Under the pieces are notes generated by a model. That model saw only the letters and a list, made by a program, of their open reading frames with translations, was not told the DNA's origin and searched no databases. 39,013 nucleotides of DNA, taken from the NCBI GenBank assembly GCA_020445945.1, contig JAGRFQ010000062.1, positions 1 through 39,013 of the forward strand, written 5' to 3'. The DNA is from Rhodocyclaceae bacterium. Its GTDB lineage: Bacteria > Pseudomonadota > Gammaproteobacteria > Burkholderiales > Rhodocyclaceae. Both the position numbers and the translations under genes were made by a program. Below are positions 3,935-27,469 of the stretch, one piece after another; the first letter of the stretch is position 1, and every line of letters starts with the position of its first letter.

Positions 3935-4537
3935 TCACTTCTTGGCAGACCCGGACTTGGGCGACTCGGGCGCGGCTTCAGCCTGCGCATCGCCGGCACC
4001 CTTGCCATAGCTCGGCAGCTGGAAGCCGGTAAACAGATTGCGCGTCTGGCTTTCGACCTGCTCCTGCATCTGGGTGAGCATTTTTTTGCTCTGCTCCATA
4101 TACGCACCCATCATGCTTTGCATTGCAGGCCCCTGAAAATTCAGGAACTGTGCCCACAAATCCTGGCTGATCGGACTGTTGTCACCGTAGATCGAGCGCG
4201 CCTGATCCTGCAACTTGTGCTGCATGTCGGTAAATGCCTTGATATTGTTTTCAAGGTACTTGCCCATCATGCCCTGCATTGCGTTGCCGTAGAAACGGAT
4301 CATGTGGGCCAGCAGATCACTGGTAAACATCGGCGCACCACCCGCCTCTTCTTCAAGAATGATCTGCAGAAGAATGCTGCGCGTCAGGTCATCGCCTGAC
4401 TTTGCATCCAGCACCTGAAAGTCATCGTTGGCGAGAACCAGCTCTTTGACATCCGCCAGCGTGATGTAGGAACTCGTGCGAGTGTCATACAGGCGTCGAT
4501 TGGGATACTTCTTGATGAGTCGTGCTTGATCCGGCAT
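3935..4537 (-). CDS. phaR: PHB synthesis repressor PhaR
   Basis: A 200-residue protein with the PHB/PHA accumulation regulator DNA-binding domain at the N-terminus (LIKKYPNRRLYDT, then ITLADVKELV) followed by the PHB_acc domain. PhaR binds both DNA and polyhydroxybutyrate, and represses phasin and other PHA genes until nascent granules titrate it away. The C-terminus is rich in Q, M and A and ends in a Ser/Lys tail. ATG 4537 is preceded by GGAG nine bases away; a GTG at 4552 is the alternative. The gene has its own -10 element upstream and a terminator separates it from phaB1, so it is independently expressed and probably carries rimO with it. Confidence 0.95.
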   Translation of the reverse strand: MPDQARLIKKYPNRRLYDTRTSSYITLADVKELVLANDDFQVLDAKSGDDLTRSILLQIILEEEAGGAPMFTSDLLAHMIRFYGNAMQGMMGKYLENNIKAFTDMQHKLQDQARSIYGDNSPISQDLWAQFLNFQGPAMQSMMGAYMEQSKKMLTQMQEQVESQTRNLFTGFQLPSYGKGAGDAQAEAAPESPKSGSAKK

Positions 4538-4582
4538 TGAAATAGTCTCCACTCGGTGGGTGGTCTCCCCACTCTGCCGTCA

Positions 4583-4588
4583 ATTATA
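4583..4588 (-). promoter_or_regulatory. -10 element of the phaR promoter
   Basis: The minus strand reads CGCGGTATAATTGACGG, a perfect TATAAT about 45 bp before the phaR ATG. No good -35 is seen at 16-18 bp, where the sequence is the T-rich edge of the phaB1 terminator. The promoter may need an activator or be weak. Confidence 0.55.
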
Positions 4589-4603
4589 CCGCGGTGCAGA
4601 AAG

Positions 4604-4631
4604 AAAAACCCTGCCATAAGACAGGGTTTTT
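4604..4631 (-). terminator. rho-independent terminator after phaB1
   Basis: Arms AAAAACCCTG and CAGGGTTTTT (10 bp, perfect) enclose an 8-nt loop. On the minus strand the stem runs into TTTTTCTTTCT, so it ends phaB1 transcripts 28 bp after the stop codon, before the phaR promoter. Confidence 0.88.
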
Positions 4632-4658
4632 CGTGAGGCTTGTCGCAGTGCGGCGCCC

Positions 4659-5399
4659 TCAGCCCATGTGAAGACCACCGTTGATGTTGATGGTTTCACC
4701 GGAAATATAACCAGCCACATCGGATGCCAGGTAGGTGCACAGGCCGCCGATTTCTTCCGGCTTGCCCAAACGCTTCATCGGTACCGTGTCGGTGATCGCC
4801 TGACGGATGTCATCACGAATTGCCATCACCATGTCGGTCGCGATGTATCCCGGCGCGATCGCATTTACCGTGACGCCCTTGGTTGCCAGTTCCTGCGCCA
4901 AGGCCTTGGTGAAACCGAGCACACCAGCTTTGGCTGCGGAGTAGTTCGACTGACCGGCCTGACCTTTCACGCCATTGACCGAAGAAATGTTGATGATGCG
5001 CCCCCAACCACGCTCGGCCATTTTCGGCGAGATGTGGTGAGTAACGTTGAACAGGCTGTTCAGGTTGGTGTTGATGACAGCCGACCACTGACTCAGATCC
5101 ATCTTCGGGAAGAACTTGTCGCGCGTGATTCCGGCGTTGTTCACCAGCACATCAATCTGACCGGCTTCGGCTTCGATCTTTTCGACCATCACCTTGCACG
5201 AATCGTAATCCGACACATCGCCTTCGGCGGCAAGAAACTTGTAACCCAGCGCTTCTTGCTCGGCGAGCCACGCATCCTTCTGCGGGAAGCCCGGCAGGCA
5301 GTTGGCAACCACAACGTAGCCTTCCTTGGCAAACGCCTGGCAAATCGCCGTACCCAGACCGCCCATGGCACCCGTAACCAACGCAATTTTCTTCGTCAT
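4659..5399 (-). CDS. phaB: acetoacetyl-CoA reductase, copy 1
   Basis: A 246-residue short-chain dehydrogenase that reduces acetoacetyl-CoA to (R)-3-hydroxybutyryl-CoA with NADPH, the precursor step for PHB. The cofactor loop is TGAMGGLG. The catalytic residues are S140 (NISSVNG), Y153 and K157 (SNYSAAKAG). NNAG and the C-terminal NGGLHMG match Cupriavidus PhaB, which has the same length. The start at ATG 5399 has GAGGATAGG just upstream. The gene has its own -10 element, a possible PhaR operator, and terminators on both sides, so it is monocistronic. A paralogue of equal length lies immediately upstream. Confidence 0.93.
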   Translation of the reverse strand: MTKKIALVTGAMGGLGTAICQAFAKEGYVVVANCLPGFPQKDAWLAEQEALGYKFLAAEGDVSDYDSCKVMVEKIEAEAGQIDVLVNNAGITRDKFFPKMDLSQWSAVINTNLNSLFNVTHHISPKMAERGWGRIINISSVNGVKGQAGQSNYSAAKAGVLGFTKALAQELATKGVTVNAIAPGYIATDMVMAIRDDIRQAITDTVPMKRLGKPEEIGGLCTYLASDVAGYISGETININGGLHMG

Positions 5400-5485
5400 A
5401 GTCCTATCCTCAAGCTATTTATCGTGTTACGGCAGTATGTAGCGCCAGCGGAGGGATGCCGTGCCACACAACCAGCCTTGATTTG

Positions 5486-5491
5486 ATTATA
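5486..5491 (-). promoter_or_regulatory. -10 element of the phaB1 promoter
   Basis: The minus strand carries a perfect TATAAT in CATCTTATAATCAAATC, about 90 bp upstream of the phaB1 start and downstream of the phaB2 terminator. No consensus -35 is present at 17 bp. Instead an inverted repeat at 5511-5527 occupies that position. Confidence 0.65.
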
Positions 5492-5510
5492 AGATGAAAA
5501 CGAGCGCTTC

Positions 5511-5527
5511 TGTTGCGACGCACAACC
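5511..5527 (-). promoter_or_regulatory. candidate PhaR operator over the phaB1 -35 region
   Basis: The imperfect palindrome TGTTGCGACGCACAACC contains TGC-N3-GCA flanked by GTTG/CAAC-like arms. From memory, sites bound by betaproteobacterial PhaR/PhbF repressors have a TGC-N3-GCA(A) core. The site sits about 20 bp upstream of the -10, where a bound repressor would block RNA polymerase. That PhaR, encoded next door, uses it is inference. Confidence 0.4.
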
Positions 5528-5534
5528 ATAAAGT

Positions 5535-5568
5535 CAAAAAAATGGCGCACCCGGTGCGCCATTTTTTT
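5535..5568 (-). terminator. strong rho-independent terminator after phaB2
   Basis: A GGCGCAC/GTGCGCC core stem with a CCG loop is extended by A/T pairs (AAAAAAT...ATTTTTT). On the minus strand the stem ends in a run of T. The sequence is nearly symmetrical, so it could also work on the opposite strand. It lies 15 bp after the phaB2 stop and isolates phaB1. Confidence 0.92.
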
Positions 5569-5582
5569 ATCGCACAAGGCAA

Positions 5583-6323
5583 TCAGAACATGTGCTGACC
5601 GCCGTTGATCGAAATATTCGCGCCGGTAACGAAGGCGGCTTCTTCCGAACACAGGTAAGCAATCAGCCCGGCGATCTCTTCGGGCTTGCCCAGACGATTC
5701 ATCGGGATGTGCGGCAGAATCTTGGATTCGAGCACTTCGCTCGGGATCGCCATCACCATCTTGGTCCCGATGTAACCCGGAGAGATGGTGTTGACCGTCA
5801 CGCCCGAACGCGCAACTTCCAACGCCAGCGACTTGGTAAAGCCGTGCATGCCGGCCTTGGCTGCGGCGTAGTTGGTTTGACCAAAGGCACCCTTGATGCC
5901 GTTCAGCGACGAGACGTTGACCACGCGCCCCCACTTGCGCTCAAGCATGCCCGGCATGACCTGCTTGGTCATGTTGAAGACGCTGTCGAGGTTGGTGTGA
6001 ATCACCGCATCCCAATCGGCCTTGGTCATTTTCTTGAAGGTCATGTCGCGCGTGATACCCGCGTTGTTGACCAGGACGTCGACCGAACCGGCGCTCTCTT
6101 CGACCTGCTTGATGCACGCTTCCGCTGACTCGAAGCTGGACACGTCGCAGGGAACCCCCTGAAAGCCGTAGCCCATGTTGTTCATCGACTGCAGCCAGTC
6201 ATCGACTTTTGTGTTGCCCGGCGAATGGGTCGTTACGACCTTATATCCGAGAGCTGCCAGCTTGATGCAGATCGCTTCACCCAGACCACCCATACCACCA
6301 GTGACAAGTGCGACTCGTGCCAT
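5583..6323 (-). CDS. phaB: acetoacetyl-CoA reductase, copy 2
   Basis: A second 246-residue PhaB-like short-chain dehydrogenase. The cofactor loop TGGMGGLG, NNAG, S139 (NVSSLNG), Y152 and K156 (TNYAAAKAG) and the C-terminus NGGQHMF all fit acetoacetyl-CoA reductase. It matches copy 1 at roughly half of its positions by eye, and is diverged in the 30-60 region (THSPGNTKVDDWL) that contacts the cofactor tail. Cofactor preference could therefore differ (inference). AGGAGG lies nine bases before ATG 6323, the best ribosome site in the cluster. It follows phaC by 96 bp containing two alternative hairpins and is probably read from the phaC promoter. Confidence 0.92.
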   Translation of the reverse strand: MARVALVTGGMGGLGEAICIKLAALGYKVVTTHSPGNTKVDDWLQSMNNMGYGFQGVPCDVSSFESAEACIKQVEESAGSVDVLVNNAGITRDMTFKKMTKADWDAVIHTNLDSVFNMTKQVMPGMLERKWGRVVNVSSLNGIKGAFGQTNYAAAKAGMHGFTKSLALEVARSGVTVNTISPGYIGTKMVMAIPSEVLESKILPHIPMNRLGKPEEIAGLIAYLCSEEAAFVTGANISINGGQHMF

Positions 6324-6349
6324 ATTGTTGTTCCTCCTCTCCCATCAAT

Positions 6350-6395
6350 CCAGGGGCTGAAAATACCCTGGCGGTGCCCCTACATATCCGCCAGG
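6350..6395 (-). promoter_or_regulatory. mutually exclusive hairpins between phaC and phaB2
   Basis: Read on the minus strand, CCTGGCGG (6388-6395) can pair with CCGCCAGG (6367-6374) across a 13-nt loop, followed by GTATTTTC. The same arm region CCAGGG (6366-6371) can instead pair with CCCTGG (6350-6355). The two stems share bases, so only one can form at a time. This resembles an attenuator or an RNA-processing element between the two genes. Function is inferred only from the fold. Confidence 0.5.
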
Positions 6396-6419
6396 CTTTG
6401 AATCCATCACACCAGCGTG

Positions 6420-8147
6420 TCAGGATTTCTCTTTCACGTAGCGCCCGGGCGCAGGCTCAATCGGTTCGTATTTTGTGCTGCCGAGACGCCCCCGCGCGGC
6501 AATATCCTTGCCGCTACGCGGCTTGAGCCATTCGATCCAGTCGACCCACCAGCTGCCGGGCTTTTCCTCTGCCGCTTCAAGCCATTCATCCGGCGCAGCG
6601 CATTCGGCTTCGCCAACCCAATAGCTCCGGCGATTCTTGCTTGCCGGATTGATCGCGCCGGCGATGTGCCCACTCGCGCCAAGCACGAAGCGCGTCTCGC
6701 CACCAAGGAGCTTGCGCACCAGGTAGGCGCTCTGCCACGGCACGATGTGGTCTTCGCGGGTCGCCAGCAAGTACGCCGGCACGTCGACTTTGCCCAGATC
6801 GATCTTTTCGCCGAGCATCTTGAGTTTGCCCGGCACGCGAAGATTGTTCTCAAGATACATATTGCGCAGATACCACGCCAGGAACGGCCCCGGCAGACTG
6901 GTACTGTCGGAGTTCCAGTACAACAGATCGAAGGCCTGCGGCTTGCCGCCTTTGAGGTAATTCCCGACCACGTACTGCCAGATCAGATCATTGGCGCGCA
7001 GCGACGAAAACACGTTGGCCAGTTCGCGGCCGGGCAACAAGCCACCCTTGCCGATGGTCGCCTCGCGTGCCGCAACGCTGTTTTCGTCGATCAGGCAACC
7101 GAGTTCGCCAGAATCGGCAAAATCGAGCAGGGTCGTCATCAAGGTCAGGCTTTCGACCGGGTCCTCGCCGCGCGCGCGCAGCACCGCCAGCGAGGAGGTG
7201 AGAATCGTCCCGCCAACGCAGAAGCCCAGCACGTTCGGCTTTTTCACCTTGGTCACGCTGCGCACGATTTCGAGTGCGGTCAGCGGCCCCTTCTCGAGGT
7301 AGTCGTCCCACGTCGCATTGGCCTGCGCCTGGGTCGCGTTTTTCCACGACACCAGGAACACCGTAATACCTTGTTCGACGATGAAGCGCACCAGCGAGTT
7401 GTGCGGCTGCAAGTCCATGATGTAGAACTTGTTGATGCACGGCGGCACGATCAGCAGCGGGGTCTGGCTGACCTTGTCGGTCAGTGGCGAATACTGGATC
7501 AACTGCATCAAATCGTTTTCGTAGATCACCGACCCCGGCGTAACTGCCAGGTTGGTGCCGACTTCGAAGGCGTCATCGTCGGTCATCGAGATGCGGCCCT
7601 TTTCCAGATCCTTGAGCAGGTTCTGGATACCGTCGGTAATGCTCTGGCCTTTCGAGTCGAGTGCCGCCTTGACGAACTCCGGATTGGTCGCCGCGAAGTT
7701 GCTCGGCGCCATCGCATCGATGTACTGACGGGTCAGATATTGCAGACGCGCCTTGTTGCGACCATCTTCGATCGGCAACACATCGGCCACATTCTCGAGG
7801 TAGCCCGAATTGAGCAGATAGGCCTGGCGCAGATAATCGTAGAACGGGCTCTCGCTCCATACCTCGGCGCTGAAGCGGCGGTCGCCCTTCTGTGCGCGAA
7901 CCACCGGTTCGGCGGTCTCGCCCGGCCCGGCCTGCAGCATCTGCGACCACAGCTTGGCATGCGTCTGCATGAACTGCTGCTGGAGGGTCAACAGCGCCTC
8001 GGCATCCGGCAACGGCACCTTGACCGCAGACTGCGGCAACGCCGCATTGTGCTGTCCGACCGCTTCAAAAAACTTGCGCGTAAATTGCTCGCCAAACTTC
8101 AAGACATCTTCTGCGTTGGGGAACGTAGAATTTTTCTTGTCGGTCAT
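6420..8147 (-). CDS. phaC: class I polyhydroxyalkanoate synthase
   Basis: A 575-residue PHA synthase that polymerises (R)-3-hydroxyacyl-CoA, chiefly 3-hydroxybutyryl-CoA, into granule polyester with release of CoA. A PhaC N-terminal domain is followed by an alpha/beta hydrolase core. The lipase-like box GFCVGG holds C310, with D466 (REDHIVPW) and H494 (GASGHIAG) completing the triad. Length and box fit class I enzymes, and no phaE subunit is nearby. ATG 8147 is preceded by AAGGAGAAGGA. The gene heads the PHA region. No phaA (thiolase) or phasin gene lies in the window, so acetoacetyl-CoA supply must be encoded elsewhere. Confidence 0.96.
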   Translation of the reverse strand: MTDKKNSTFPNAEDVLKFGEQFTRKFFEAVGQHNAALPQSAVKVPLPDAEALLTLQQQFMQTHAKLWSQMLQAGPGETAEPVVRAQKGDRRFSAEVWSESPFYDYLRQAYLLNSGYLENVADVLPIEDGRNKARLQYLTRQYIDAMAPSNFAATNPEFVKAALDSKGQSITDGIQNLLKDLEKGRISMTDDDAFEVGTNLAVTPGSVIYENDLMQLIQYSPLTDKVSQTPLLIVPPCINKFYIMDLQPHNSLVRFIVEQGITVFLVSWKNATQAQANATWDDYLEKGPLTALEIVRSVTKVKKPNVLGFCVGGTILTSSLAVLRARGEDPVESLTLMTTLLDFADSGELGCLIDENSVAAREATIGKGGLLPGRELANVFSSLRANDLIWQYVVGNYLKGGKPQAFDLLYWNSDSTSLPGPFLAWYLRNMYLENNLRVPGKLKMLGEKIDLGKVDVPAYLLATREDHIVPWQSAYLVRKLLGGETRFVLGASGHIAGAINPASKNRRSYWVGEAECAAPDEWLEAAEEKPGSWWVDWIEWLKPRSGKDIAARGRLGSTKYEPIEPAPGRYVKEKS

Positions 8148-8486: not shown

Positions 8487-9230
8487 TCATGCATCGCCCG
8501 CCGCCAGCCACACCATCGCCGCCATGCGCCCGGTCGTTCCGTCGCGTCGATACGAGTAGAAACGGCCGGGCTCGTTGACCGTACATGCCCCGCCACCGAA
8601 CACCGAAAGCACGCCACTTCGCGCCAGCCGCAGGCGGGCGAGCCGGTAGATGTCGGCGATCCATTTTTCGTCACTGGACGCACGACAAAACGCCTGGGCT
8701 GCGGCCGGATCGCACGCGACGAACGCGTCGCGCACCTCGCTGCCGACTTCAAAGGCCTGCGGTCCAATGGCCGCGCCCAGCCAGGCCAGCACCTGAGCCG
8801 GCGCCACCCCCATCGCCGCCACGGTGTTCTCAAGCACCCCGGCACACAAACCCCGCCAACCCGCATGCGCGGCAGCAACCACGGTGCCGGCGCGATCGCA
8901 CAACAACACCGGCAGACAATCGGCGGTCATGATCGTGCACGCTAGCCCCGCGTGGCGGGAGGTTGCCGCATCGGCGGGCGGATATGTTTCAGCCGGGGCA
9001 AGATCGACCACCGCGGTCCCGTGAACCTGCTCCAGCCACACCGGCGTCGCGCCAGACGCAGCCGCCAGGCGACGACGATTCTCGAGCACCGCCGCCGCCG
9101 CATCGCCGACATGCGCCCCCAGGTTCAGCCCGGCGTAGGGCCCCGTGCTGACGCCGCCATGGCGCGTCGTCATCAGCGCACGAACGCGCGGCGGCGCTGG
9201 CCAGCCGGGATACACCACGTCAAGCATCAT
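8487..9230 (-). CDS. pgeF: peptidoglycan editing factor PgeF (YfiH family)
   Basis: A roughly 247-residue protein of the Cu-oxidase_4/DUF152 family. In E. coli the homologue removes misincorporated residues such as L-Ser from UDP-MurNAc peptide precursors. Family members were earlier called multicopper polyphenol oxidases. Visible motifs are TRHGGVSTGPYAGLNLG, TADCLPVLLCD, HAGWRGL and GPQAFEVG, containing the conserved His/Cys/His metal site. Tandem ATGs at 9230 and 9227 lie behind GAGG and overlap the rluD end by 8-11 bp. A longer frame to 9308 would lie inside rluD and is unlikely. The rluD-pgeF pairing is common in proteobacteria. Confidence 0.93.
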   Translation of the reverse strand: MMLDVVYPGWPAPPRVRALMTTRHGGVSTGPYAGLNLGAHVGDAAAAVLENRRRLAAASGATPVWLEQVHGTAVVDLAPAETYPPADAATSRHAGLACTIMTADCLPVLLCDRAGTVVAAAHAGWRGLCAGVLENTVAAMGVAPAQVLAWLGAAIGPQAFEVGSEVRDAFVACDPAAAQAFCRASSDEKWIADIYRLARLRLARSGVLSVFGGGACTVNEPGRFYSYRRDGTTGRMAAMVWLAAGDA

Positions 9231-15751: not shown

Positions 15752-15767
15752 CTGGCACGAACCATGC
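15752..15767 (+). promoter_or_regulatory. sigma-54 (-24/-12) promoter of ATP-grasp set 1
   Basis: CTGGCACGAACCATGC matches the consensus YTGGCACG-N4-TTGC at all -24 positions and has GC at -12, with exactly 10 bp between the GG and GC dinucleotides. Predicted transcription start is near 15779, 27 bp before the first gene of the set. RpoN promoters need an enhancer-binding activator and often control nitrogen functions. No other -24/-12 element was noticed in the window. Confidence 0.65.
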
Positions 15768-15805
15768 GTCAGTCTCGTCACAGCCACTCACATGACGGGA
15801 CAGCC

Positions 15806-17218
15806 ATGGTTGCCTTCTACAACGAGATGAATACGGCGGATGGCGGGGTCAGGCCGCATTACAGCGAGTTCGCCAAGTGGCTCCAAACGGCGGCGCCCGA
15901 ACGCCTGGCACGCAAACGCGCCGAAGCCGACCTGACCTTTCATCGCGTCGGCATCACGTTCGCGGTGTATGGCGAGGACGCGGGCAAGGAGCGCCTGATT
16001 CCGTTCGACATCGTGCCGCGCATCATTCCTGCCGACGAGTGGCGCGACATGTCCGCCGGTCTGCGCCAACGCGTGAAGGCGCTCAACGCGTTTCTGCACG
16101 ACATCTACCACGACCAGGAGATCATCGCCGCCGGCCACATCCCGGCCGCCCAGGTGCTGGGCAATCGCCAGTATCGACCGGAGATGCAGGGCGTCGACGT
16201 GCCGGGCAACATCTACGCACACATCGCCGGGGTGGATATCGTGCGCGCCGGCGAAGGCGAGTTCTACGTGCTGGAAGACAACCTTCGCGTGCCGTCCGGC
16301 GTGTCGTACATGATCGAAGACCGGAAAATGATGATGCGTCTGTTTCCGGAGCTCTTTTCGCGCCACAAGGTAGCACCGGTACTGCACTACCCCGACCTGC
16401 TGTTCGACAGCTTGCGCACCGCGGCGCCCGACGGGGTCGAAGACCCGACGGTCGTCGTCCTCACCCCGGGCGCCTACAACAGCGCCTACTTCGAGCACAC
16501 CTATCTGGCGCAGCAGATGGGGGTCGAACTGGTCGAGGGGCGCGACCTCTTCGTGCGCGACGACACGGTCTGGATGCGCACCACCCGGGGCGACGAGCGC
16601 GTCGATGTCATCTACCGGCGGATCGATGACGACTACCTCGACCCGCTGGCTTTCCGCGAAGACTCGATGCTCGGCGTACCGGGCTTGCTGTCGGCCTACA
16701 AGGCAGGGCGGGTAACGCTGGCCAACGCAATCGGCACCGGCGTGGCCGATGACAAGTCGATCTACCCCTACGTGCCGGAAATGATCCGTTTCTACCTTGG
16801 AGAGGAGCCCATCCTCAACAACGTGCCAACCTACATGTGCCGCAAGCCGGACGACCTCGACTATGTGCTCAACCACCTCGGCGAACTGGTCGTGAAGGAA
16901 GTTCACGGCGCCGGCGGCTACGGCATGCTCGTGGGGCCGGCCGCAAGCGCCGGGGAAATCGAACGCTTTCGCGAACGCTTGATTGCCGAGCCCGACGGCT
17001 ACATCGCCCAGCCGACGCTGGCCTTGTCGAACTGCCCTACCTTCGTGGACGCCGGCATCGCGCCGCGCCACATCGATCTGCGCCCCTTCATCCTGTCAGG
17101 CGAGGAGGTGCGGATGGTGCCGGGCGGACTGACCCGCGTCGCCCTGCGCGAGGGGTCGCTGGTGGTCAACTCGTCGCAGGGCGGCGGCACCAAAGACACC
17201 TGGGTGCTCGAAGAATGA
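15806..17218 (+). CDS. circularly permuted ATP-grasp protein (set 1)
   Basis: A 470-residue protein of the circularly permuted ATP-grasp family (CP_ATPgrasp_2, formerly DUF404/DUF407). ATP-grasp enzymes form amide bonds through acyl-phosphate intermediates. Aravind and colleagues predicted from gene neighbourhoods that this clade makes or attaches small peptides. Recognisable blocks are GGVRPHYSEFAKWL at the N-terminus, RIIPADEWRDMSAGL, VLEDNLRVPSGVSYM, TPGAYNSAYFEHTYLA, YRRIDDDYLDPL, VVKEVHGAGGYGM and VPGGLTRVA. I chose ATG 15806; an in-frame ATG at 15764 would overlap the -12 promoter region. The alpha-E gene follows after 37 bp. Substrates are unknown. A fused paralogue is encoded at 21831. 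Confidence 0.9.
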   Translation: MVAFYNEMNTADGGVRPHYSEFAKWLQTAAPERLARKRAEADLTFHRVGITFAVYGEDAGKERLIPFDIVPRIIPADEWRDMSAGLRQRVKALNAFLHDIYHDQEIIAAGHIPAAQVLGNRQYRPEMQGVDVPGNIYAHIAGVDIVRAGEGEFYVLEDNLRVPSGVSYMIEDRKMMMRLFPELFSRHKVAPVLHYPDLLFDSLRTAAPDGVEDPTVVVLTPGAYNSAYFEHTYLAQQMGVELVEGRDLFVRDDTVWMRTTRGDERVDVIYRRIDDDYLDPLAFREDSMLGVPGLLSAYKAGRVTLANAIGTGVADDKSIYPYVPEMIRFYLGEEPILNNVPTYMCRKPDDLDYVLNHLGELVVKEVHGAGGYGMLVGPAASAGEIERFRERLIAEPDGYIAQPTLALSNCPTFVDAGIAPRHIDLRPFILSGEEVRMVPGGLTRVALREGSLVVNSSQGGGTKDTWVLEE

Positions 17219-17255
17219 GCCCTCCCCACATTCATCGACGCTGGAGAACCTTGCC

Positions 17256-18203
17256 ATGCTGAGTCGCACCGCGGACCACCTGTTCTGGATGTCCCGCTAC
17301 ATCGAACGCGCCGAGAACCTCGCCCGCCTGCTGGACGTCACCTGGCAGATGTCGATGGTCCCGCAGTCGCTGGACGCGGCCAATCAAAACTGGCAGGCGG
17401 TCATCAACCTGAACAGCCTTGAAGATGCGTTCTTCGCCAAGTATTCGGAAACCAACGCAGCCAACGTCTTGCGCTTCATGATCAGCGACGTGGACAACCC
17501 GGCGTCGATCACCGCCTGCCTCAGAATGGGCCGCGAGAACGCCCACGCCGTGCGCGGCACCATCACCGCCGAGATGTGGGAGACGCTCAACGCCACCTGG
17601 ATCGAACTCAACACCCAGAACACCGACGCCATGATGACCTACGGCCCGAGCGATTTCTTCGACTGGGTCAAGCTGCGCTCGTCGCTGATCCACGGCGCCA
17701 CCCTCGGCACCATGCTGCAGGACGAGGCCTACCAGTTCATCCGCCTTGGCACCCTGCTCGAACGCGCCGACAACACCGCACGCCTGCTCGACGTCAAATA
17801 CCACGTGCTGGTGCCCACCGGCGAAGAGGCAACCACCGACTTCTACCAATGGGGGGCGTTGCTGCGCGCCGTCTCCGCCTTCGAGGTGTATCGCAAAACC
17901 TTCCGCACCGGCATCACCCCATCGCGCGTTGCCGCGCTGCTCACACTTCACCCGAGCATGCCCCGCTCTCTGCTATTCTGCCTGCGCGGTGCAGTCAGGA
18001 GTCTGGCCCTGGTTGCCAACGATCAGTCGGGGGAAACCCAGCGTCGCGCCGGCCGGCTCTACAGCGAGCTGCGCTACGCCCGGATCGAAGACATCCTTGC
18101 CAGCGGCTTGCACGAATTTCTCAGCGATTTCATGGATCGCGTGGAAGATCTGTGCAACGGGGTGAGCAACGATTTTCTTGTGACCCCGCAAGCGGCTGCC
18201 TGA
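17256..18203 (+). CDS. alpha-E domain protein (DUF403), set 1
   Basis: A 315-residue all-helical protein of the alpha-E family (DUF403, PF04168), named for conserved glutamates in a helical bundle. It starts MLSRTADHLFWMSRYIERAENLARLLD and includes LGTLLERADNTARLLDVKYH. It almost always accompanies the permuted ATP-grasp, and in set 2 the same domain is fused to it, which implies a stable complex or shared reaction. GGAG lies nine bases before ATG 17256. Its biochemical role is unknown; binding or catalysis on the ATP-grasp product is the usual suggestion. There is no signal peptide. Confidence 0.92.
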   Translation: MLSRTADHLFWMSRYIERAENLARLLDVTWQMSMVPQSLDAANQNWQAVINLNSLEDAFFAKYSETNAANVLRFMISDVDNPASITACLRMGRENAHAVRGTITAEMWETLNATWIELNTQNTDAMMTYGPSDFFDWVKLRSSLIHGATLGTMLQDEAYQFIRLGTLLERADNTARLLDVKYHVLVPTGEEATTDFYQWGALLRAVSAFEVYRKTFRTGITPSRVAALLTLHPSMPRSLLFCLRGAVRSLALVANDQSGETQRRAGRLYSELRYARIEDILASGLHEFLSDFMDRVEDLCNGVSNDFLVTPQAAA

Positions 18204-18275
18204 ATGCGAGCTGTTTCTGCGCCAGCAGGCCATAGAATCCTAATTTTTTGAATTTGTCCCCTTGGGAGCTCATTT

Positions 18276-21662
<3,387 letters not shown>

Positions 21663-21676
21663 GCGCCAGCAAATCG

Positions 21677-21717
21677 CGCGTCGACGTTGCCATTGCGCGA
21701 CGTCGACGCGTTTTTTT
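21677..21717 (+). terminator. terminator after set 1
   Basis: Perfect 11-bp arms CGCGTCGACGT and ACGTCGACGCG around a 12-nt loop, followed by seven T. It separates set 1 from set 2, so the second set needs its own promoter. Confidence 0.93.
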
Positions 21718-21830
21718 GCGCGCCGTTTCAGTGCCTGTGTGATCGATGACCATTGTTGCGGCGGGGTGCGAACAGTTAATATCGGCCTCCTCACGCCCCT
21801 CAATCGTTGGCCCCACCCCCCGATTTTCCG

Positions 21831-24344
21831 ATGCCGCCGCCCCTGTTTTCCAACTATTCGCGCCCGTCTGATCGCTACGACGAGATGCTCGACGCGCACG
21901 GCACGGTACGCCCGCACTGGCACACACTGCTGCAGCACCTGAAGGCATCCTCGCCGGCAGCGATGCGCCAGCGCGTCGAGGTGACCGACCGCAGCATTGC
22001 CGAGAACGGTATCGCCTACAACGTGTATGGCGACCCCGACGGCCTCGACCGGCCGTGGGCGCTCGACCCGATCCCGCTGATCATTGCCGCCGACGAATGG
22101 CGCCAGCTGAGCGACGCCGTAGCCCAGCGCGCGCGGCTGCTCAACGCGGTCCTCGCCGACCTGTACGGCGACCAGCACCTGCTCGGCGAAGGCCTGCTGC
22201 CCCCGTCGCTGGTGTACGGGCAGCACGGCTTCCTGTGGCCGTGCCACAACGTCAAGCAACCTGGCGGCGTGTTTCTGCATCACTACGCGGTCGATCTGGC
22301 GCGCTCGCCGGATGGCCACTGGTGGGTCATCGGCGACCGCACCCAGGCCCCGTCCGGGGCCGGCTACGCGCTGGAGAACCGGCTCATCATCTCGCGCGTG
22401 TTCCCGCAGCTGTTCCGCGATCTCAAGGTCCAGCGGCTGGCGTCGTTCTTCGCCACCCTGCAGCAAAGCTACGAGCACTGGGCCCCGGTCGACCGGGGCG
22501 AGCAGGCGCTGGTGGTCGTGCTCACCCCCGGCCCGTACAACGAAACCTATTTCGAGCACGCCTACCTCGCGCGCTACCTCGGCTACCCGCTGGTCGAGGG
22601 GCAAGACCTCACGGTGCGCGGCGAAACCGTGTATCTCAAAACCCTCACCGGCCTGCGCCGGGTGCACGCCATCCTGCGCCGTCAGGACGACGACTTCTGC
22701 GACCCGCTCGAGCTGCGCGGCGACTCCACGCTCGGCATTCCGGGCCTGCTCCACGCGGTGCGCGCCGGCCGGGTGATGATCAGCAACGCGCTGGGCAGCG
22801 GCCTGCCTGGGTCGAGCGCGGTGATGGGCTTTTTGCCGGCAATCGCCAAACGCCTGCTCAACGAGGAGCTCATGCTCCCCTCGGTGGCGACCTGGTGGTG
22901 CGGCGAGGCGCCCGCCCTGGACTACGTCCTCGACAATCTCGACGCGCTGGTCATCAAGGGCACCTATCCCTCGCAGCGCCTTGAACCGGTGTTCGGCCGC
23001 GAGCTGCAGGGCGAGGCGCGCGACGAGATGGTGCGCCGCATCCGCGCCCGCCCGCACGCCTACGTCGCGCAGGAGCTGGTCCGCCTGTCGCAAGCGCCGG
23101 TGTGGAGCCGCGAGCACGCGCACGGCCTGCAGCCCCGCAACGTGGGGCTACGCCTGTACGCCGTGGCTACGCCGGACGGCTACAAGGTGATGCCGGGAGG
23201 ACTGGCCCGCGCCGCGGGGAGCGCCAACGCGCTGGTCTTGTCGATGCAGCGCGGCGGCGCGGCCAAGGACGCCTGGGTGCTGGCCGACAGCGCGGTCGAC
23301 ACCTTCAGCCTGCTCAAATCCGCGACCGGCAAGGGCACCCTCGTACGTGCCGGCAACAACCTCTCGTCGCGGGTGGTGGAGAACCTGTTCTGGCTCGGCC
23401 GCTACGCCGAACGCTTCGACGGCACCACGCGCCTGCTGCGGCTGGCGATGGCGCACTACATCGACAACGGCGGCGAGAGCACGCCCGAGTTCGAAGCGCT
23501 GGTCGCCCTGTGTCTGGAGATGAAAATCCTCCGCCCCGGCCGCGAAGAGGACGACGACGATGACAGCGACTGGGTGCCGGTCGAGAAACGCCTGCGCGCC
23601 GCGGTCAACGACCCGGCCACCAGCAACAGCGTGGCCGATGCGGTCGGCCGCCTGTTCTGGTCCGCCTCGCAGGTGCGCGAGCGCCTGTCGCTCGACCACT
23701 GGTACTCGCTCAACCGCCTGCATCGCGACATCCAGGGGCGCAGCGCCGATCAGAGCGAACTGGGCGAAATCCTGATGCTGCTCGACCGCATGCTCCAGGT
23801 GTCGTCCTCGCTGACCGGCTTCACCATGGACAACATGACCCGCGACACCGGCTGGCGCATGCTGCTGGTCGGCCGGCGCATCGAGCGCCTCACCTTCCTC
23901 GCGGGGGCGATCAGCGCCTTCCTGCGCACCCTGCCAGGGCGCAACGGACGCCACCTCGACTGGCTGCTCGAATTCACCGACAGCATCATCACCTACCGCT
24001 CGCGCTACCTGCGCACGCCGGAACTGCTCACGGTGGTCGACCTGATCGTGCTCGACGAGAGCAACCCCCACTCGGTGATGTTCCAGATCAACGCCCTCGA
24101 ACGCTATCTGATGCTGCTCGAAAAAGACCTCGGCGAAGTCCCCAGCGACGCCTTTTCCGCCGCCTGTGAAGCCTTCCGGAGCATCGACCTCGACACCTTC
24201 CAGCACACGCCGGCCACCGCCTGCGCCGAGTTCGCCAAGCAGCTCAAGACGCTCGAATTTGCCGGCTTCGACCTGTCGAACCGCATCGGCATGCGCTTCT
24301 TCAGCCACGTCGGCGCCGTCAGCCACCAGACGCTCGCCCGTTGA
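21831..24344 (+). CDS. circularly permuted ATP-grasp fused to alpha-E (set 2)
   Basis: An 837-residue fusion. Residues about 1-490 repeat the ATP-grasp architecture of set 1 (GTVRPHWHTLLQHL, LIIAADEWRQLSDA, TPGPYNETYFEHAYLA, RRQDDDFCDPLEL, LVIKGTYPSQRLEPVFG, VMPGGLARAAG). From about residue 508 an alpha-E domain begins (NLSSRVVENLFWLGRYAERFDG), aligning with the first residues of the separate set 1 alpha-E protein. An Asp-rich loop near residue 575 is an insertion. The first ATG is 21831; a TTG at 21807 is possible. Neither has a Shine-Dalgarno sequence, so the start is uncertain. Sequence similarity to set 1 is clear but far from identical, which argues against a recent duplication. The next gene starts 3 bp after the stop. 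Confidence 0.9.
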   Translation: MPPPLFSNYSRPSDRYDEMLDAHGTVRPHWHTLLQHLKASSPAAMRQRVEVTDRSIAENGIAYNVYGDPDGLDRPWALDPIPLIIAADEWRQLSDAVAQRARLLNAVLADLYGDQHLLGEGLLPPSLVYGQHGFLWPCHNVKQPGGVFLHHYAVDLARSPDGHWWVIGDRTQAPSGAGYALENRLIISRVFPQLFRDLKVQRLASFFATLQQSYEHWAPVDRGEQALVVVLTPGPYNETYFEHAYLARYLGYPLVEGQDLTVRGETVYLKTLTGLRRVHAILRRQDDDFCDPLELRGDSTLGIPGLLHAVRAGRVMISNALGSGLPGSSAVMGFLPAIAKRLLNEELMLPSVATWWCGEAPALDYVLDNLDALVIKGTYPSQRLEPVFGRELQGEARDEMVRRIRARPHAYVAQELVRLSQAPVWSREHAHGLQPRNVGLRLYAVATPDGYKVMPGGLARAAGSANALVLSMQRGGAAKDAWVLADSAVDTFSLLKSATGKGTLVRAGNNLSSRVVENLFWLGRYAERFDGTTRLLRLAMAHYIDNGGESTPEFEALVALCLEMKILRPGREEDDDDDSDWVPVEKRLRAAVNDPATSNSVADAVGRLFWSASQVRERLSLDHWYSLNRLHRDIQGRSADQSELGEILMLLDRMLQVSSSLTGFTMDNMTRDTGWRMLLVGRRIERLTFLAGAISAFLRTLPGRNGRHLDWLLEFTDSIITYRSRYLRTPELLTVVDLIVLDESNPHSVMFQINALERYLMLLEKDLGEVPSDAFSAACEAFRSIDLDTFQHTPATACAEFAKQLKTLEFAGFDLSNRIGMRFFSHVGAVSHQTLAR

Positions 24345-24347
24345 TCC

Positions 24348-25265
24348 ATGGCCCGCTACCACGTCATCCACGAAACCCGCTACGACTACGGAAGCAGCGT
24401 GTCGCTGTCGCACCAGATGCTCCACCTGGTGCCACGCACCTCCCAGTGGCAAAACTGCCTCGACTACCGCCTCGACGTCACCCCCGCCCCGGTGTGGCGC
24501 AAGCTCGGTACCGACGCCTTCGGCAATCCGGTCGAGTGGTTTGCCTTTTACGAACCGCACGAAGCGCTGCACATACGCTCCGAAATGCACATCGAGGTCC
24601 ACCCGCACCGCATCGACACGCTGTCCGACTCGATTGCCTGGGACGCGCTCGCAGGCCGCCTCACCTACCGCAGCGGCGGTCACCCCGACATCGACGACCT
24701 GGCCGCCAAGCGCTATCTGTTCGAATCGCCGCACGTGCGCATCAAGCACGAACTGGCCGACTACGCCGACGACTGCTTTACGCCCGGCCGTCCCGTACTC
24801 GAAGCCACTGCCGCGCTGATGGAAAAGATCTTCACCGAATTCGAGTTCGACCCCGAGGCCACCACCGACACCACCCCGGTGCTCGAAGTCCTCAAGAACA
24901 AGCGCGGCGTGTGCCAGGACTTTGCCCACCTGATGATCGCCTGCCTGCGCGCCAAGGGCCTGCCCGCGCGCTACATGAGCGGCTACCTGCTCACCCACCC
25001 GCCGGCAGGCCAGCCGCGCATGGTTGGCGCCGACGCATCGCACGCCTGGGTGGCGGTCTATGCCCCCGGCAGCGGGGACGGCTGGATCGAGTTCGACCCC
25101 ACCAACAACCTGCTGCCCGACACCCAGCACATCACGATTGCCTGGGGGCGCGACTTCAGCGACGTATCCCCCTTGCGCGGCGTCATCCTGGGCGGCGGCG
25201 GCCACGAACCCGAGGTCGCGGTCACGGTCACGCCGCTCGACGACGCCACAGCCGACACACCCTGA
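24348..25265 (+). CDS. transglutaminase-like cysteine peptidase (set 2)
   Basis: A 305-residue protein starting MARYHVIHETRYDYGSSV, the bacterial transglutaminase N-terminal domain, followed by a transglutaminase core with C189 (RGVCQDFAHL), H232 (ASHAWVAVY) and D250 (EFDPTNN). All three triad residues are present, so it should be active as a peptidase, amidase or transamidase. It is the DUF2126-free counterpart of the set 1 fusion. No signal peptide is seen. ATG 24348 lies 3 bp after the ATP-grasp/alpha-E fusion stop, so translation is coupled. The C-terminal tail after GVILGGGGHEPEVAVTV is the usual end of this family. Confidence 0.93.
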   Translation: MARYHVIHETRYDYGSSVSLSHQMLHLVPRTSQWQNCLDYRLDVTPAPVWRKLGTDAFGNPVEWFAFYEPHEALHIRSEMHIEVHPHRIDTLSDSIAWDALAGRLTYRSGGHPDIDDLAAKRYLFESPHVRIKHELADYADDCFTPGRPVLEATAALMEKIFTEFEFDPEATTDTTPVLEVLKNKRGVCQDFAHLMIACLRAKGLPARYMSGYLLTHPPAGQPRMVGADASHAWVAVYAPGSGDGWIEFDPTNNLLPDTQHITIAWGRDFSDVSPLRGVILGGGGHEPEVAVTVTPLDDATADTP

Positions 25266-25357: not shown

Positions 25358-27469
25358 GTGACGCATCTTGTTGCAACTCGACTCAGCCTCCCCCTGCCCC
25401 GCCCCGACGGTGGTCAATGGCTGCTGGAAGATTTTGATCTCACCCTGGAAGAAGGCGCATCCCTTGCCATCATTGGCACCGAGCCCGGACTCGCTACAGC
25501 GATGCTCGACGCCTTTGCCGGCAACGTGCTCCCCACGCGCGGCGGCATGCTGCTCGACGGGCGCGAACTGCGCGCCCCGGACGCCCGCATCACACGCATT
25601 GGCGAGATGTCGAACGGTACCGCCTTCCGTAGCGCCGCAAGCTATCTCAGGAAAGCCGCCGCCGGCACCATTGCCCAGCGCCTCGGCCAGGCAGAGCTGG
25701 AGCGCTGGGTAAACCACAATCTGCACCTGGTCGGGATGGAAGATGTCGGCCCGCTGGGACTGCGCCGGCTGTCGCCACACGCCCGCACACGCATTCAGCT
25801 TGCCCGCGGTCTGGTGACCGAACCGCGCGCTCTGTTCATCGACCACCTGTTCGATGCGCTCGACGAGACGCAGCGCAATCAATGCGTCGATCTGCTCCTC
25901 GACCTGCAAAGCCGGATCGCCACGACGCTGGTTTTTGCCACCGACGACATCGACCAGGCCATACTTTTTGCCGACCGCGTGCTGTGTCTGCGCGTGGATG
26001 GCGACGACGTGGTGTGCGCCATCCACGGGGTCGACCTGCTGCGCCCGCGCGCGCGCCTCGACCTCTCCCGCATGGTCAGCGCGCGCAGCCTGCACGACAC
26101 ACTGTACGCCCAGCTCGGGCGACTTGCGCCGACGCAGCTGCCGGCCGCCGCAGAGGCGCAGCCCTGCGACGACAGCTCGGTGGTGTTCATGAACAACTGG
26201 GTCGCCTCGCACCCGGAGCGCTCGGGCAAAGTGCTCGAAAAACACAGCCTGACGCTCGGTTTTCTGCCACTCATCGACTGCGCTCCGCTGGCCATCGCGC
26301 TGGAGGAAGGGTTCTTCAAGGGCGCCGGGCTTGAAGTCACGCTGTCGCGTGAATCGTCGTGGAGCAACGTGCAGGACAAAGTCTCGCTGGGCCTGCTCGA
26401 TGGCGCACAGATGCTCGCCGCCATGCCGCTGGCCGCCGCACTCGACACCTCGATGACCCCGCTGGTCACGGCCATGAGCCTCGGTCGCAACGGCAACGCG
26501 ATTACCGTCTCGAAGGAACTGCACGCTCAGCTCGCGCTGCCAGCCGCGGCGCCAACCGATCCGCTCGACGCGGTGCACGCCTTGCGTGCCGAAGTCGATC
26601 GCCGTCGCCACGCGCGCCTGCGCCAGCTCATTTTCGCCATCGTCGCCCCGCACTCCTCGCACAACTATCTGCTGCGTTACTGGCTCGCCTGTGGCGGCAT
26701 CGACGCCGACCGCGACGTCAAGCTGGTGGTCGTTCCACCGCCGCAGATGGTGAGCTATCTGGCGGCCAGCATGATCGACGGATTCTGCGTCGGCGAACCG
26801 TGGAACACCGTCGCCAGCGACGACGACCTCGGCGTACCACTGGTGTCGACCTGGCAGATCTGGAACAACCACCCGGAGAAAGTGCTCGGCGTAACCCGCG
26901 CCTGGGCCGATGCCCATCCAAACACGCACCGCACGCTCATAAAGAGCCTGCTCGACGCCTGCTGGTGGCTCGACAAGGCCGACAACCGCTCGCGCGCGTG
27001 CGAGATCCTGAGCCACGGCCGCTACGTGAATATCGCCCCCGACGTCCTCGAACGGTCGCTGGCGAGCACCTACACCACCCACGGCGGGCTGGTGATGCAT
27101 CAGCGCTTCCACGCCGGCGCGGCCAACTTCCCCTGGCACTCGCATGCGGCCTGGCTGCTCGCGCAGATGGCGCGCTGGGGCCAGACCCGGCTGCCCAACA
27201 ACGTCGCGCGGGTGTGCGCCAGCACCTATCGCACCGACATCTATCGCGGCGCCGTCGGCTTCGGCGACGCCTGCCCGGCCGAGGACTGGAAAGACGAAGG
27301 CGCACACGCCGACACATGGCAAATGGAGGGCGCAGAGCGGCCGGTTGAACTCGGCCCCGACCGCTTCATCGACGGCGCCGTTCTCGCCGACAAGGACCTC
27401 GCACGCCATGTAGCCGGCTACGCCATACCGGCCCATCCGGAGGAATCCAAGGCCGACAGCGCCGCCTGA
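25358..27469 (+). CDS. degenerate ABC-ATPase domain fused to NrtA/CmpA-like binding domain
   Basis: A 703-residue protein built like cyanobacterial NrtC, which is an ATPase with an NrtA-like C-terminus. Residues about 1-225 align with a nitrate/sulfonate-type ABC ATPase, but each catalytic motif is changed. The Walker A region reads GTEPGLAT with A46 in place of lysine. The signature LSGGQ reads LSPHA (138-142). The Walker B end LDE reads IDH (161-163), and the switch histidine THD reads TDD (195-197). ATP hydrolysis is therefore unlikely. From about residue 245 the NrtA/CmpA-like domain is well kept (LGFLPLIDCAPLAIALEEGFF, DGAQMLAAMPLAAALD, WLACGGIDADRDV, GEPWNT). No signal peptide or permease gene is present, so a cytoplasmic sensor role is more likely than transport (inference). 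GTG 25358 has AGGAG six bases upstream. Confidence 0.85.
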   Translation: MTHLVATRLSLPLPRPDGGQWLLEDFDLTLEEGASLAIIGTEPGLATAMLDAFAGNVLPTRGGMLLDGRELRAPDARITRIGEMSNGTAFRSAASYLRKAAAGTIAQRLGQAELERWVNHNLHLVGMEDVGPLGLRRLSPHARTRIQLARGLVTEPRALFIDHLFDALDETQRNQCVDLLLDLQSRIATTLVFATDDIDQAILFADRVLCLRVDGDDVVCAIHGVDLLRPRARLDLSRMVSARSLHDTLYAQLGRLAPTQLPAAAEAQPCDDSSVVFMNNWVASHPERSGKVLEKHSLTLGFLPLIDCAPLAIALEEGFFKGAGLEVTLSRESSWSNVQDKVSLGLLDGAQMLAAMPLAAALDTSMTPLVTAMSLGRNGNAITVSKELHAQLALPAAAPTDPLDAVHALRAEVDRRRHARLRQLIFAIVAPHSSHNYLLRYWLACGGIDADRDVKLVVVPPPQMVSYLAASMIDGFCVGEPWNTVASDDDLGVPLVSTWQIWNNHPEKVLGVTRAWADAHPNTHRTLIKSLLDACWWLDKADNRSRACEILSHGRYVNIAPDVLERSLASTYTTHGGLVMHQRFHAGAANFPWHSHAAWLLAQMARWGQTRLPNNVARVCASTYRTDIYRGAVGFGDACPAEDWKDEGAHADTWQMEGAERPVELGPDRFIDGAVLADKDLARHVAGYAIPAHPEESKADSAA

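What the first reader, a model, noticed from the sequence alone, without database searches (positions are those of the whole stretch)
15752..25265. Two differently built ATP-grasp / alpha-E / transglutaminase sets in tandem
Set 1 encodes permuted ATP-grasp and alpha-E as separate proteins plus a transglutaminase-DUF2126 fusion. Set 2 encodes ATP-grasp and alpha-E as one protein plus a stand-alone transglutaminase. All visible catalytic residues of both transglutaminases are kept (C184/H233/D249 and C189/H232/D250). A strong terminator lies between the sets. The families are known, and comparative genomics by Aravind and colleagues predicted peptide synthesis, but I know of no established reaction. 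Two intact, diverged sets side by side suggest successive steps or two substrates, with DUF2126 marking one branch.
Basis: partly seen in the sequence, partly recalled or inferred. Interest (0 to 1): 0.75.

Follow-up and report, generated by a model that had tools for sequence, protein, structure and literature searches.

The report
Peptide-ligase operon with a dead twin
Two neighbouring gene sets for putative amide-bond-forming enzymes turn out to be one probably working ligase pair beside a conserved three-gene unit whose own ligase copy has lost its catalytic residues, which changes what experiments on this poorly understood bacterial system should test.

Summary
The five genes and their domains are confirmed: ATP-grasp, alpha-E, transglutaminase (TG)-DUF2126, an ATP-grasp/alpha-E fusion, and TG. 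Both TG triads are present.

(1) The sets are not both intact. The fused ATP-grasp lacks the metal-binding E-x-N, the glycine loop and the DxR aspartate. 0 of 121 fused homologues keep E and N together; 40 of 40 separate ones keep all these sites. One branch (100/100) parts the types. The fused alpha-E also lost polar residues conserved in separate alpha-Es.

(2) The grouping is wrong. TG-DUF2126, fusion and TG follow each other on one strand in 109 of 113 stretches holding both DUF2126 and the fusion. The separate pair is the core of the known Anbu operon; Anbu is not found here, but lies between alpha-E and DUF2126 in some relatives.

In 61 genomes, all 28 with the fusion and all 35 with DUF2126 also carry a separate alpha-E.

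Most likely: one active ATP-grasp/alpha-E ligase plus a DUF2126 unit with a conserved pseudo-ligase as non-catalytic partner. Substrate and reaction remain unknown.

The parts
15752..17218 (+). Separate circularly permuted ATP-grasp, catalytic motifs present (E175-D-N177, K382 with GAGGYG loop, D442-L-R444). The start is uncertain: TTG 15752, or ATG 15764 or 15806.
   Evidence: PF14403 566 bits; same motifs as PDB 3n6x; sites kept in 40 of 40 separate homologues
17256..18203 (+). Separate alpha-E protein
   Evidence: PF04168 327 bits; polar residues typical of separate alpha-Es
18204..18275 (+). 72-bp gap between alpha-E and TG-DUF2126, the place where L060, L032, L046, L150-L153, L155 and L156 have an Anbu gene
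   Evidence: only HslV found in the own genome
18276..21662 (+). TG fused to DUF2126 (putative amidoligase); first gene of the conserved three-gene unit; TG triad C184/H233/D249
   Evidence: PF09899 1345 bits, PF08379, PF01841; triad
21676..21711 (+). Terminator-like hairpin with U-run inside the unit, possibly an attenuator
   Evidence: 15-pair stem; z = -5.8; other hairpins in the same gap of several relatives
21831..24344 (+). Pseudo-ATP-grasp fused to altered alpha-E (P0004; frame open from 21780, TTG at 21807; likely start ATG 21831)
   Evidence: PF14403 517 bits, PF04168 208 bits; motif loss; model matches 3n6x
24348..25265 (+). Stand-alone TG, third gene of the unit; triad C189/H232/D250
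   Evidence: PF08379, PF01841; triad kept in 120 of 121 homologues of this position

Best explanation
The locus is an extended, Anbu-less version of the Anbu-type amidoligase operon. One part is the working pair, separate ATP-grasp and alpha-E. It is inferred to activate a carboxylate with ATP and join it to an amine, with alpha-E as part of the reacting complex. The other part is a fixed three-gene unit: TG-DUF2126, pseudo-ATP-grasp/alpha-E fusion, TG. The fusion should not be able to work as an ordinary Mg-ATP ligase. It most likely acts as a non-catalytic partner that binds the pair's substrate or product, or the pair itself, and hands it to DUF2126 (a possible second ligase of glutamine-synthetase type) and to the two TG domains, which would cleave or transfer an amide. 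Shown here: domains, motif loss in all fused homologues examined, one-branch split, fixed gene order, dependence of the unit on the pair, no Anbu found. Inferred: amide-bond chemistry, role of alpha-E, partner function, order of steps. Unknown: substrate.
For: 0 of 121 fused proteins keep E and N together and none keeps D442, while 40 of 40 separate ones keep both and the glycines. One branch of 100/100 support parts fused (55 rows) from separate (27 rows). The fused type has its own fixed residues, such as Q for R179 in 93% and R for N177 in 87% of 55 rows. Alpha-E polar residues changed with it. Gene order DUF2126, fusion, TG on one strand in 109 of 113 stretches with both. All 28 fusion genomes and all 35 DUF2126 genomes of 61 have a separate alpha-E; in the phylum sample all 84 DUF2126 genomes of 299 have alpha-E and 76 have two or more, against 11 with two or more of 215 without DUF2126. 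An Anbu-operon ATP-grasp from Yersinia bercovieri releases phosphate from ATP (PMC6376114, passages). TG triads are kept in 119-120 of 121 homologues of each of the two TG positions.
Against: No activity was tested. In PMC6376114 the released phosphate was not stimulated by glutamine or glutamate and could be plain ATP hydrolysis, and pull-downs found no specific contact between the Anbu-operon proteins. Eight of 61 genomes have DUF2126 without the fusion, so the fusion is not always needed. The fused proteins keep K382 in 96 of 121 and D162 in 117 of 121, so some ligand binding may remain. Glutamine-synthetase likeness of DUF2126 is not significant. The alpha-E comparison rests on one MAFFT alignment of diverged sequences.
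Confidence: 0.6

Rival explanations
1. Two complete ligase sets act on two substrates or in two successive ATP-grasp steps.
For: Both ATP-grasp domains match PF14403 strongly, both TG triads are present, and the two are co-inherited.
Against: The fused ATP-grasp lost E-x-N, the glycine loop and the DxR aspartate in all 121 homologues examined, save that one keeps the E and one the three glycines.
Confidence: 0.08
2. The fused protein is still an enzyme, with a rebuilt site and other chemistry, as known for some pseudokinases (recalled).
For: It has its own fixed residues, among them R for N177, Q for R179 and G for S185, and keeps K382 in 96 and D162 in 117 of 121.
Against: No known ATP-grasp works without the E-x-N ligands (recalled), and the loop that holds the nucleotide phosphates is gone. 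No activity is known.
Confidence: 0.15
3. The fusion and its TG take over the task of Anbu, so that the pair can lose Anbu once the unit is present, as in this window.
For: In 61 genomes Anbu is in all 11 with a separate alpha-E but no fusion, and in 15 of 28 with the fusion (p = 0.007). All eight DUF2126 genomes without the fusion have Anbu next to DUF2126. In the window's genus Anbu is found in 3 of 10 genomes, two of these with an in-frame stop.
Against: 15 of 28 fusion genomes keep Anbu. In the phylum sample 12 of 61 genomes with one alpha-E and no DUF2126 lack Anbu too. The tests are not corrected for ancestry.
Confidence: 0.15
4. Set 2 is a decaying duplicate of set 1.
For: Loss of the catalytic residues.
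Against: The loss is shared by all fused homologues examined, with one-branch split, conserved gene order, many invariant columns and fused-specific fixed residues.
Confidence: 0.02

Closest known systems
Anbu operon: ATP-grasp, alpha-E, TG-like protein, Anbu (PMC5666114 and PMC6376114, passages read; first described by Iyer et al. 2009, not held, recalled)
   Same: Separate ATP-grasp and alpha-E side by side, TG nearby; in several relatives Anbu lies in the same gene row as DUF2126
   Different: No Anbu found in the window or its genome; instead a TG-DUF2126, a pseudo-ATP-grasp/alpha-E fusion and a further TG
Circularly permuted type 2 ATP-grasp, PDB 3n6x
   Same: Fold and sequence of both ATP-grasp domains
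   Different: The fused one lacks the metal motif, glycine loop and DxR aspartate that 3n6x has
rlo operon of Pseudomonas aeruginosa, PMC12239564 (passages read)
   Same: ATP-grasp and TG-like proteins in one operon, with one partner stated to be inactive
   Different: There the TG is inactive and in the membrane and the ATP-grasp resembles RimK; the text holds no mention of alpha-E. Here the TG triads are present and an ATP-grasp is the altered one
Glutamine synthetase family (for DUF2126)
   Same: The 15 best Foldseek hits of the DUF2126 model are of this family; the Pfam name is putative amidoligase
   Different: No hit is significant (best E 0.12) and the model is of moderate confidence (mean pLDDT 65.7)

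Membership tests
Circularly permuted ATP-grasp type 2 (PF14403), by descent | Profile match and fold | tested here: met
   566 and 517 bits against a cut-off of 32; fused model matches 3n6x at E 3.6e-31
Working ATP-grasp ligase | E-x-N metal ligands, glycine loop and DxR aspartate in P0001 (set 1) | tested here: met
Working ATP-grasp ligase | The same residues in P0004 (set 2) | tested here: not met
   G176-D-R178, KGTYPSQRLE loop, G in place of D442; 0 of 121 fused homologues keep E and N together
Working ATP-grasp ligase | ATP turnover with an acceptor | not testable with these tools
   needs protein; only a homologue's phosphate release is reported (PMC6376114, passages)
Alpha-E (PF04168) | Profile match and conserved ER motifs | tested here: met
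   P0002 327 bits, P0004 208 bits; E17-R18 and E169-R170 kept in both types, but E20, N81, R93-E94-N95, E109, N112, D172, R176 and D179 are not fixed in the fused type
Anbu operon | ATP-grasp and alpha-E adjacent | tested here: met
Anbu operon | Anbu gene present | tested here: not met
   72-bp gap in the window; no Anbu match in the own genome, which is 86.8% complete
Glutamine-synthetase-fold amidoligase (DUF2126) | Glutamine-synthetase fold and active-site residues | tested here: inconclusive
   Best Foldseek E 0.12, the first 15 hits all of this family. Profile comparison with GS gave 0.3% probability, but known relatives (GCS2 with GS) reached only 2.6% and an unrelated pair 3.2%, so the test has no power
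Bacterial TG-like cysteine enzymes (PF08379 and PF01841) | Cys-His-Asp triad | tested here: met
   C 120, H 119 and D 119 of 121 in TG-DUF2126; 120 of 121 for each in the TG after the fusion
Bacterial TG-like cysteine enzymes (PF08379 and PF01841) | Amide cleavage or transfer | not testable with these tools
   needs protein and a substrate

The most novel reading that the evidence does not exclude
A whole family of ATP-grasp/alpha-E fusions is a repurposed pseudo-ligase that arose once from an active pair. It is fixed in a TG-DUF2126 unit and needs the active pair in the same cell. That its alpha-E lost a matching set of polar residues points to alpha-E as a co-catalytic subunit of the active ATP-grasp. 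In some lineages the unit also makes the proteasome-like Anbu dispensable.
Probability: 0.35. Interest if true: 0.72.

Novelty: new variant of a known kind. Interest (0 to 1): 0.52.

Why it matters
By the alpha-E marker such systems are in 156 of 299 sampled genomes of this phylum, and the papers seen here report no established reaction for them. Knowing which copy can work and which cannot tells experimenters which protein to assay for ligase activity, which three genes to delete or move as one unit, and which residues of alpha-E to mutate. The contrast between active and inactive types gives a list of residues that should matter for catalysis in both proteins. The link to Anbu ties the unit to the open question of what this proteasome relative does.

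Tried and rejected
Recent tandem duplication: rejected, because P0001 and P0004 share only 38% over 471 residues and one deep branch parts the types.

Decay of set 2: rejected (see rivals).

A conserved extra flanking gene that would name the substrate: clustering of flanking frames in 48 chosen stretches gave no family in more than 10 of them, and none of the twelve largest clusters printed had a member in the window. One of those clusters was Anbu.

NCBIfam had no match at E 0.001 for any of the five proteins. Profile comparison of DUF2126 with GS and GCS2 was uninformative.

Literature: no paper in the held library contains DUF2126. Searches for COG2307/COG2308/COG4196, for circularly permuted ATP-grasp with alpha-E and for inactive or pseudo-ATP-grasp gave nothing, in their listings, on a fused inactive ATP-grasp. 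Iyer et al. 2009 is not held, so I cannot exclude that it notes the inactive version. No paper was read whole; of the papers cited I saw passages.

A stricter rule, that every genome with alpha-E has either Anbu or the fusion, held in 39 of 39 relatives but failed in the phylum sample (at least 12 exceptions).

Full report
WHAT IS THERE. On the + strand lie five genes: ATP-grasp (15752-17218), alpha-E (17256-18203), TG-DUF2126 (18276-21662), an ATP-grasp/alpha-E fusion (21807-24344, probable start 21831) and a TG (24348-25265). Among named records the best matches to the fusion by identity are Azovibrio (65%), Azonexus (62%) and Dechloromonas (61%), so the host is probably of that group, the Rhodocyclaceae (inference). 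The window's genome, 86.8% complete, has a third alpha-E with its ATP-grasp on contig 108 and a third TG on contig 10.

THE SECOND SET IS NOT INTACT. P0001 and the solved structure 3n6x share the ATP-grasp motifs. P0004, 38% identical to P0001, has G-D-R where P0001 has E175-D-N177, KGTYPSQRLE where P0001 has KEVHGAGGYG, and G where P0001 has D442. The roles of these motifs in metal and nucleotide binding are known for ATP-grasp enzymes in general (recalled). I collected homologues from 137 DNA stretches: 20 chosen by the fused gene in relatives, the 80 returned by a scan with the fused alignment (591 candidates, best 80 kept), 32 chosen by DUF2126 (20, 12) and five others (the window, L024, L162, L163, L164). 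Of 121 fused proteins none keeps E and N together, one keeps the E alone, none keeps the N (R 112, H 8, P 1), none keeps D442, and one keeps the three loop glycines. Of 40 separate ones all keep E, N, D442 and the glycines. Many of the 121 are Pseudomonas, so the counts are not independent. A tree of 82 rows thinned at 80% identity parts fused (55) from separate (27) by one branch with 100/100 support; the bootstrap had not fully settled and two fused rows have long branches. The root is not known from this tree. The fused type does not look like decay: it has its own fixed residues, for example Q in place of R179 in 93% and R in place of N177 in 87% of 55 rows, and many invariant columns. Its model (mean pLDDT 81.9) matches 3n6x and glutathione synthetases. 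So this is a conserved pseudo-ATP-grasp.

ALPHA-E CHANGES WITH IT. Both alpha-E types keep E17-R18 and E169-R170. Residues E20, N81, R93-E94-N95, E109, N112, D172, R176 and D179, which are 90-100% fixed in separate alpha-Es, are not fixed to the same letters in fused ones (one MAFFT alignment of diverged sequences). Loss on both sides of the pair suggests that these alpha-E residues serve the ATP-grasp reaction. This is inference, but it can be tested.

Of 113 stretches with both DUF2126 and the fusion, 109 have TG-DUF2126 (in three of them only DUF2126, near a contig end), fusion and then TG on one strand; in 4 the fusion and its TG point the other way. Most of these stretches were chosen by the fusion. 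Of the 25 stretches chosen by DUF2126 in the phylum sample, 20 hold the fusion as well. The separate pair lies upstream, downstream, divergent or elsewhere. The hairpin at 21676-21711 is strong, yet it lies within the unit. Of twelve gaps folded, several others also hold strong hairpins of different sequence, some with a T-run (L032, L042, L051). An attenuator is as likely as a boundary.

DEPENDENCE AND CO-OCCURRENCE. In 61 genomes (own and 60 relatives): fusion and DUF2126 27, fusion only 1, DUF2126 only 8, neither 25 (from; fused and separate alpha-E told apart by score and frame length). All 28 fusion genomes and all 35 DUF2126 genomes have a separate alpha-E; 3 genomes have only a separate alpha-E; 22 have none of the three. 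In 299 genomes of the phylum 84 have DUF2126; all 84 have alpha-E and 76 have two or more; of 215 without DUF2126, 11 have two or more, 61 one and 143 none. The unit thus seems to need the pair. None of these tests is corrected for ancestry.

ANBU. The pair is the core of the Anbu operon known from the literature (PMC5666114 and PMC6376114, passages). A gene whose L060 copy matches solved Anbu structures at E down to 6e-103 was found in 18 of 40 stretches with the separate pair. It lies between alpha-E and TG-DUF2126 in L060, L032, L046, L150-L153, L155 and L156, and after DUF2126 in L154. The window has a 72-bp gap there, and its genome shows a single proteasome-family gene, HslV next to HslU. 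Among the 61 genomes Anbu is in 11 of 11 with a separate alpha-E and no fusion, in 15 of 28 with the fusion, and in 1 of 22 without alpha-E. In the phylum sample the tendency is weaker: 53 of 69 with one alpha-E and 47 of 87 with two or more, and 12 genomes with one alpha-E have neither Anbu nor DUF2126.

MECHANISM. Most likely one active amidoligase (ATP-grasp with alpha-E) feeds or is served by a unit of TG-DUF2126, pseudo-ligase and TG. Phosphate release from ATP was shown for the ATP-grasp of the Y. bercovieri Anbu operon; its authors could not tell amide formation from ATP hydrolysis and found no stable complex among the operon's proteins (PMC6376114, passages). Whether DUF2126 is a second ligase is open: the 15 best structural hits of its model are of the glutamine-synthetase family, but the best E is 0.12 and the model is only moderate (mean pLDDT 65.7), and profile comparison had no power. 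TG triads are kept in 119-120 of 121 homologues at each of the two positions.

KNOWN AND NEW. The families and the Anbu operon are known. DUF2126 is in no paper of the held library. I found no paper on a fused inactive ATP-grasp in the listings, but Iyer et al. 2009 could not be read. I therefore call it a new variant of a known kind.

Noticed in passing
25358-27469 (+): Directly downstream of the second TG lies a frame with an ABC-transporter ATPase domain and an NMT1-like substrate-binding domain, as in nitrate-type uptake systems. Anbu was reported to be induced by nitrogen limitation (PMC5666114, passage), so a nitrogen link is possible; the flanking survey did not show this gene as conserved.
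   Followed up: partly
L024:5370-7832 (own genome, contig 108): A third ATP-grasp/alpha-E pair of the active type, with no TG, DUF2126 or Anbu recognised in the 14 kb fetched.
   Followed up: partly
L162:5827-6717 (own genome, contig 10): A stand-alone third TG with Cys-His-Asp motifs visible, beside a frame that looks like an ArsA/GET3-type ATPase; perhaps the displaced TG of the separate pair.
   Followed up: no
genomes G003 and G006 (same genus): Their Anbu matches hold one in-frame TAG each, so Anbu may be decaying in this genus.
   Followed up: no
L135, L136, L137, L161: In these four stretches the fusion and its TG stand divergent from TG-DUF2126; three of the four (L135, L137, L161) have Anbu next to DUF2126.
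   Followed up: no
8772-8868 (-): ARAGORN reports a tRNA with an undefined anticodon inside a laccase-type gene; Rfam does not list it, so it is probably false.
   Followed up: no
3935-8147 (-): Genes for PHB metabolism (PhaR-type regulator and PhaC polymerase) lie upstream in the window.
   Followed up: no
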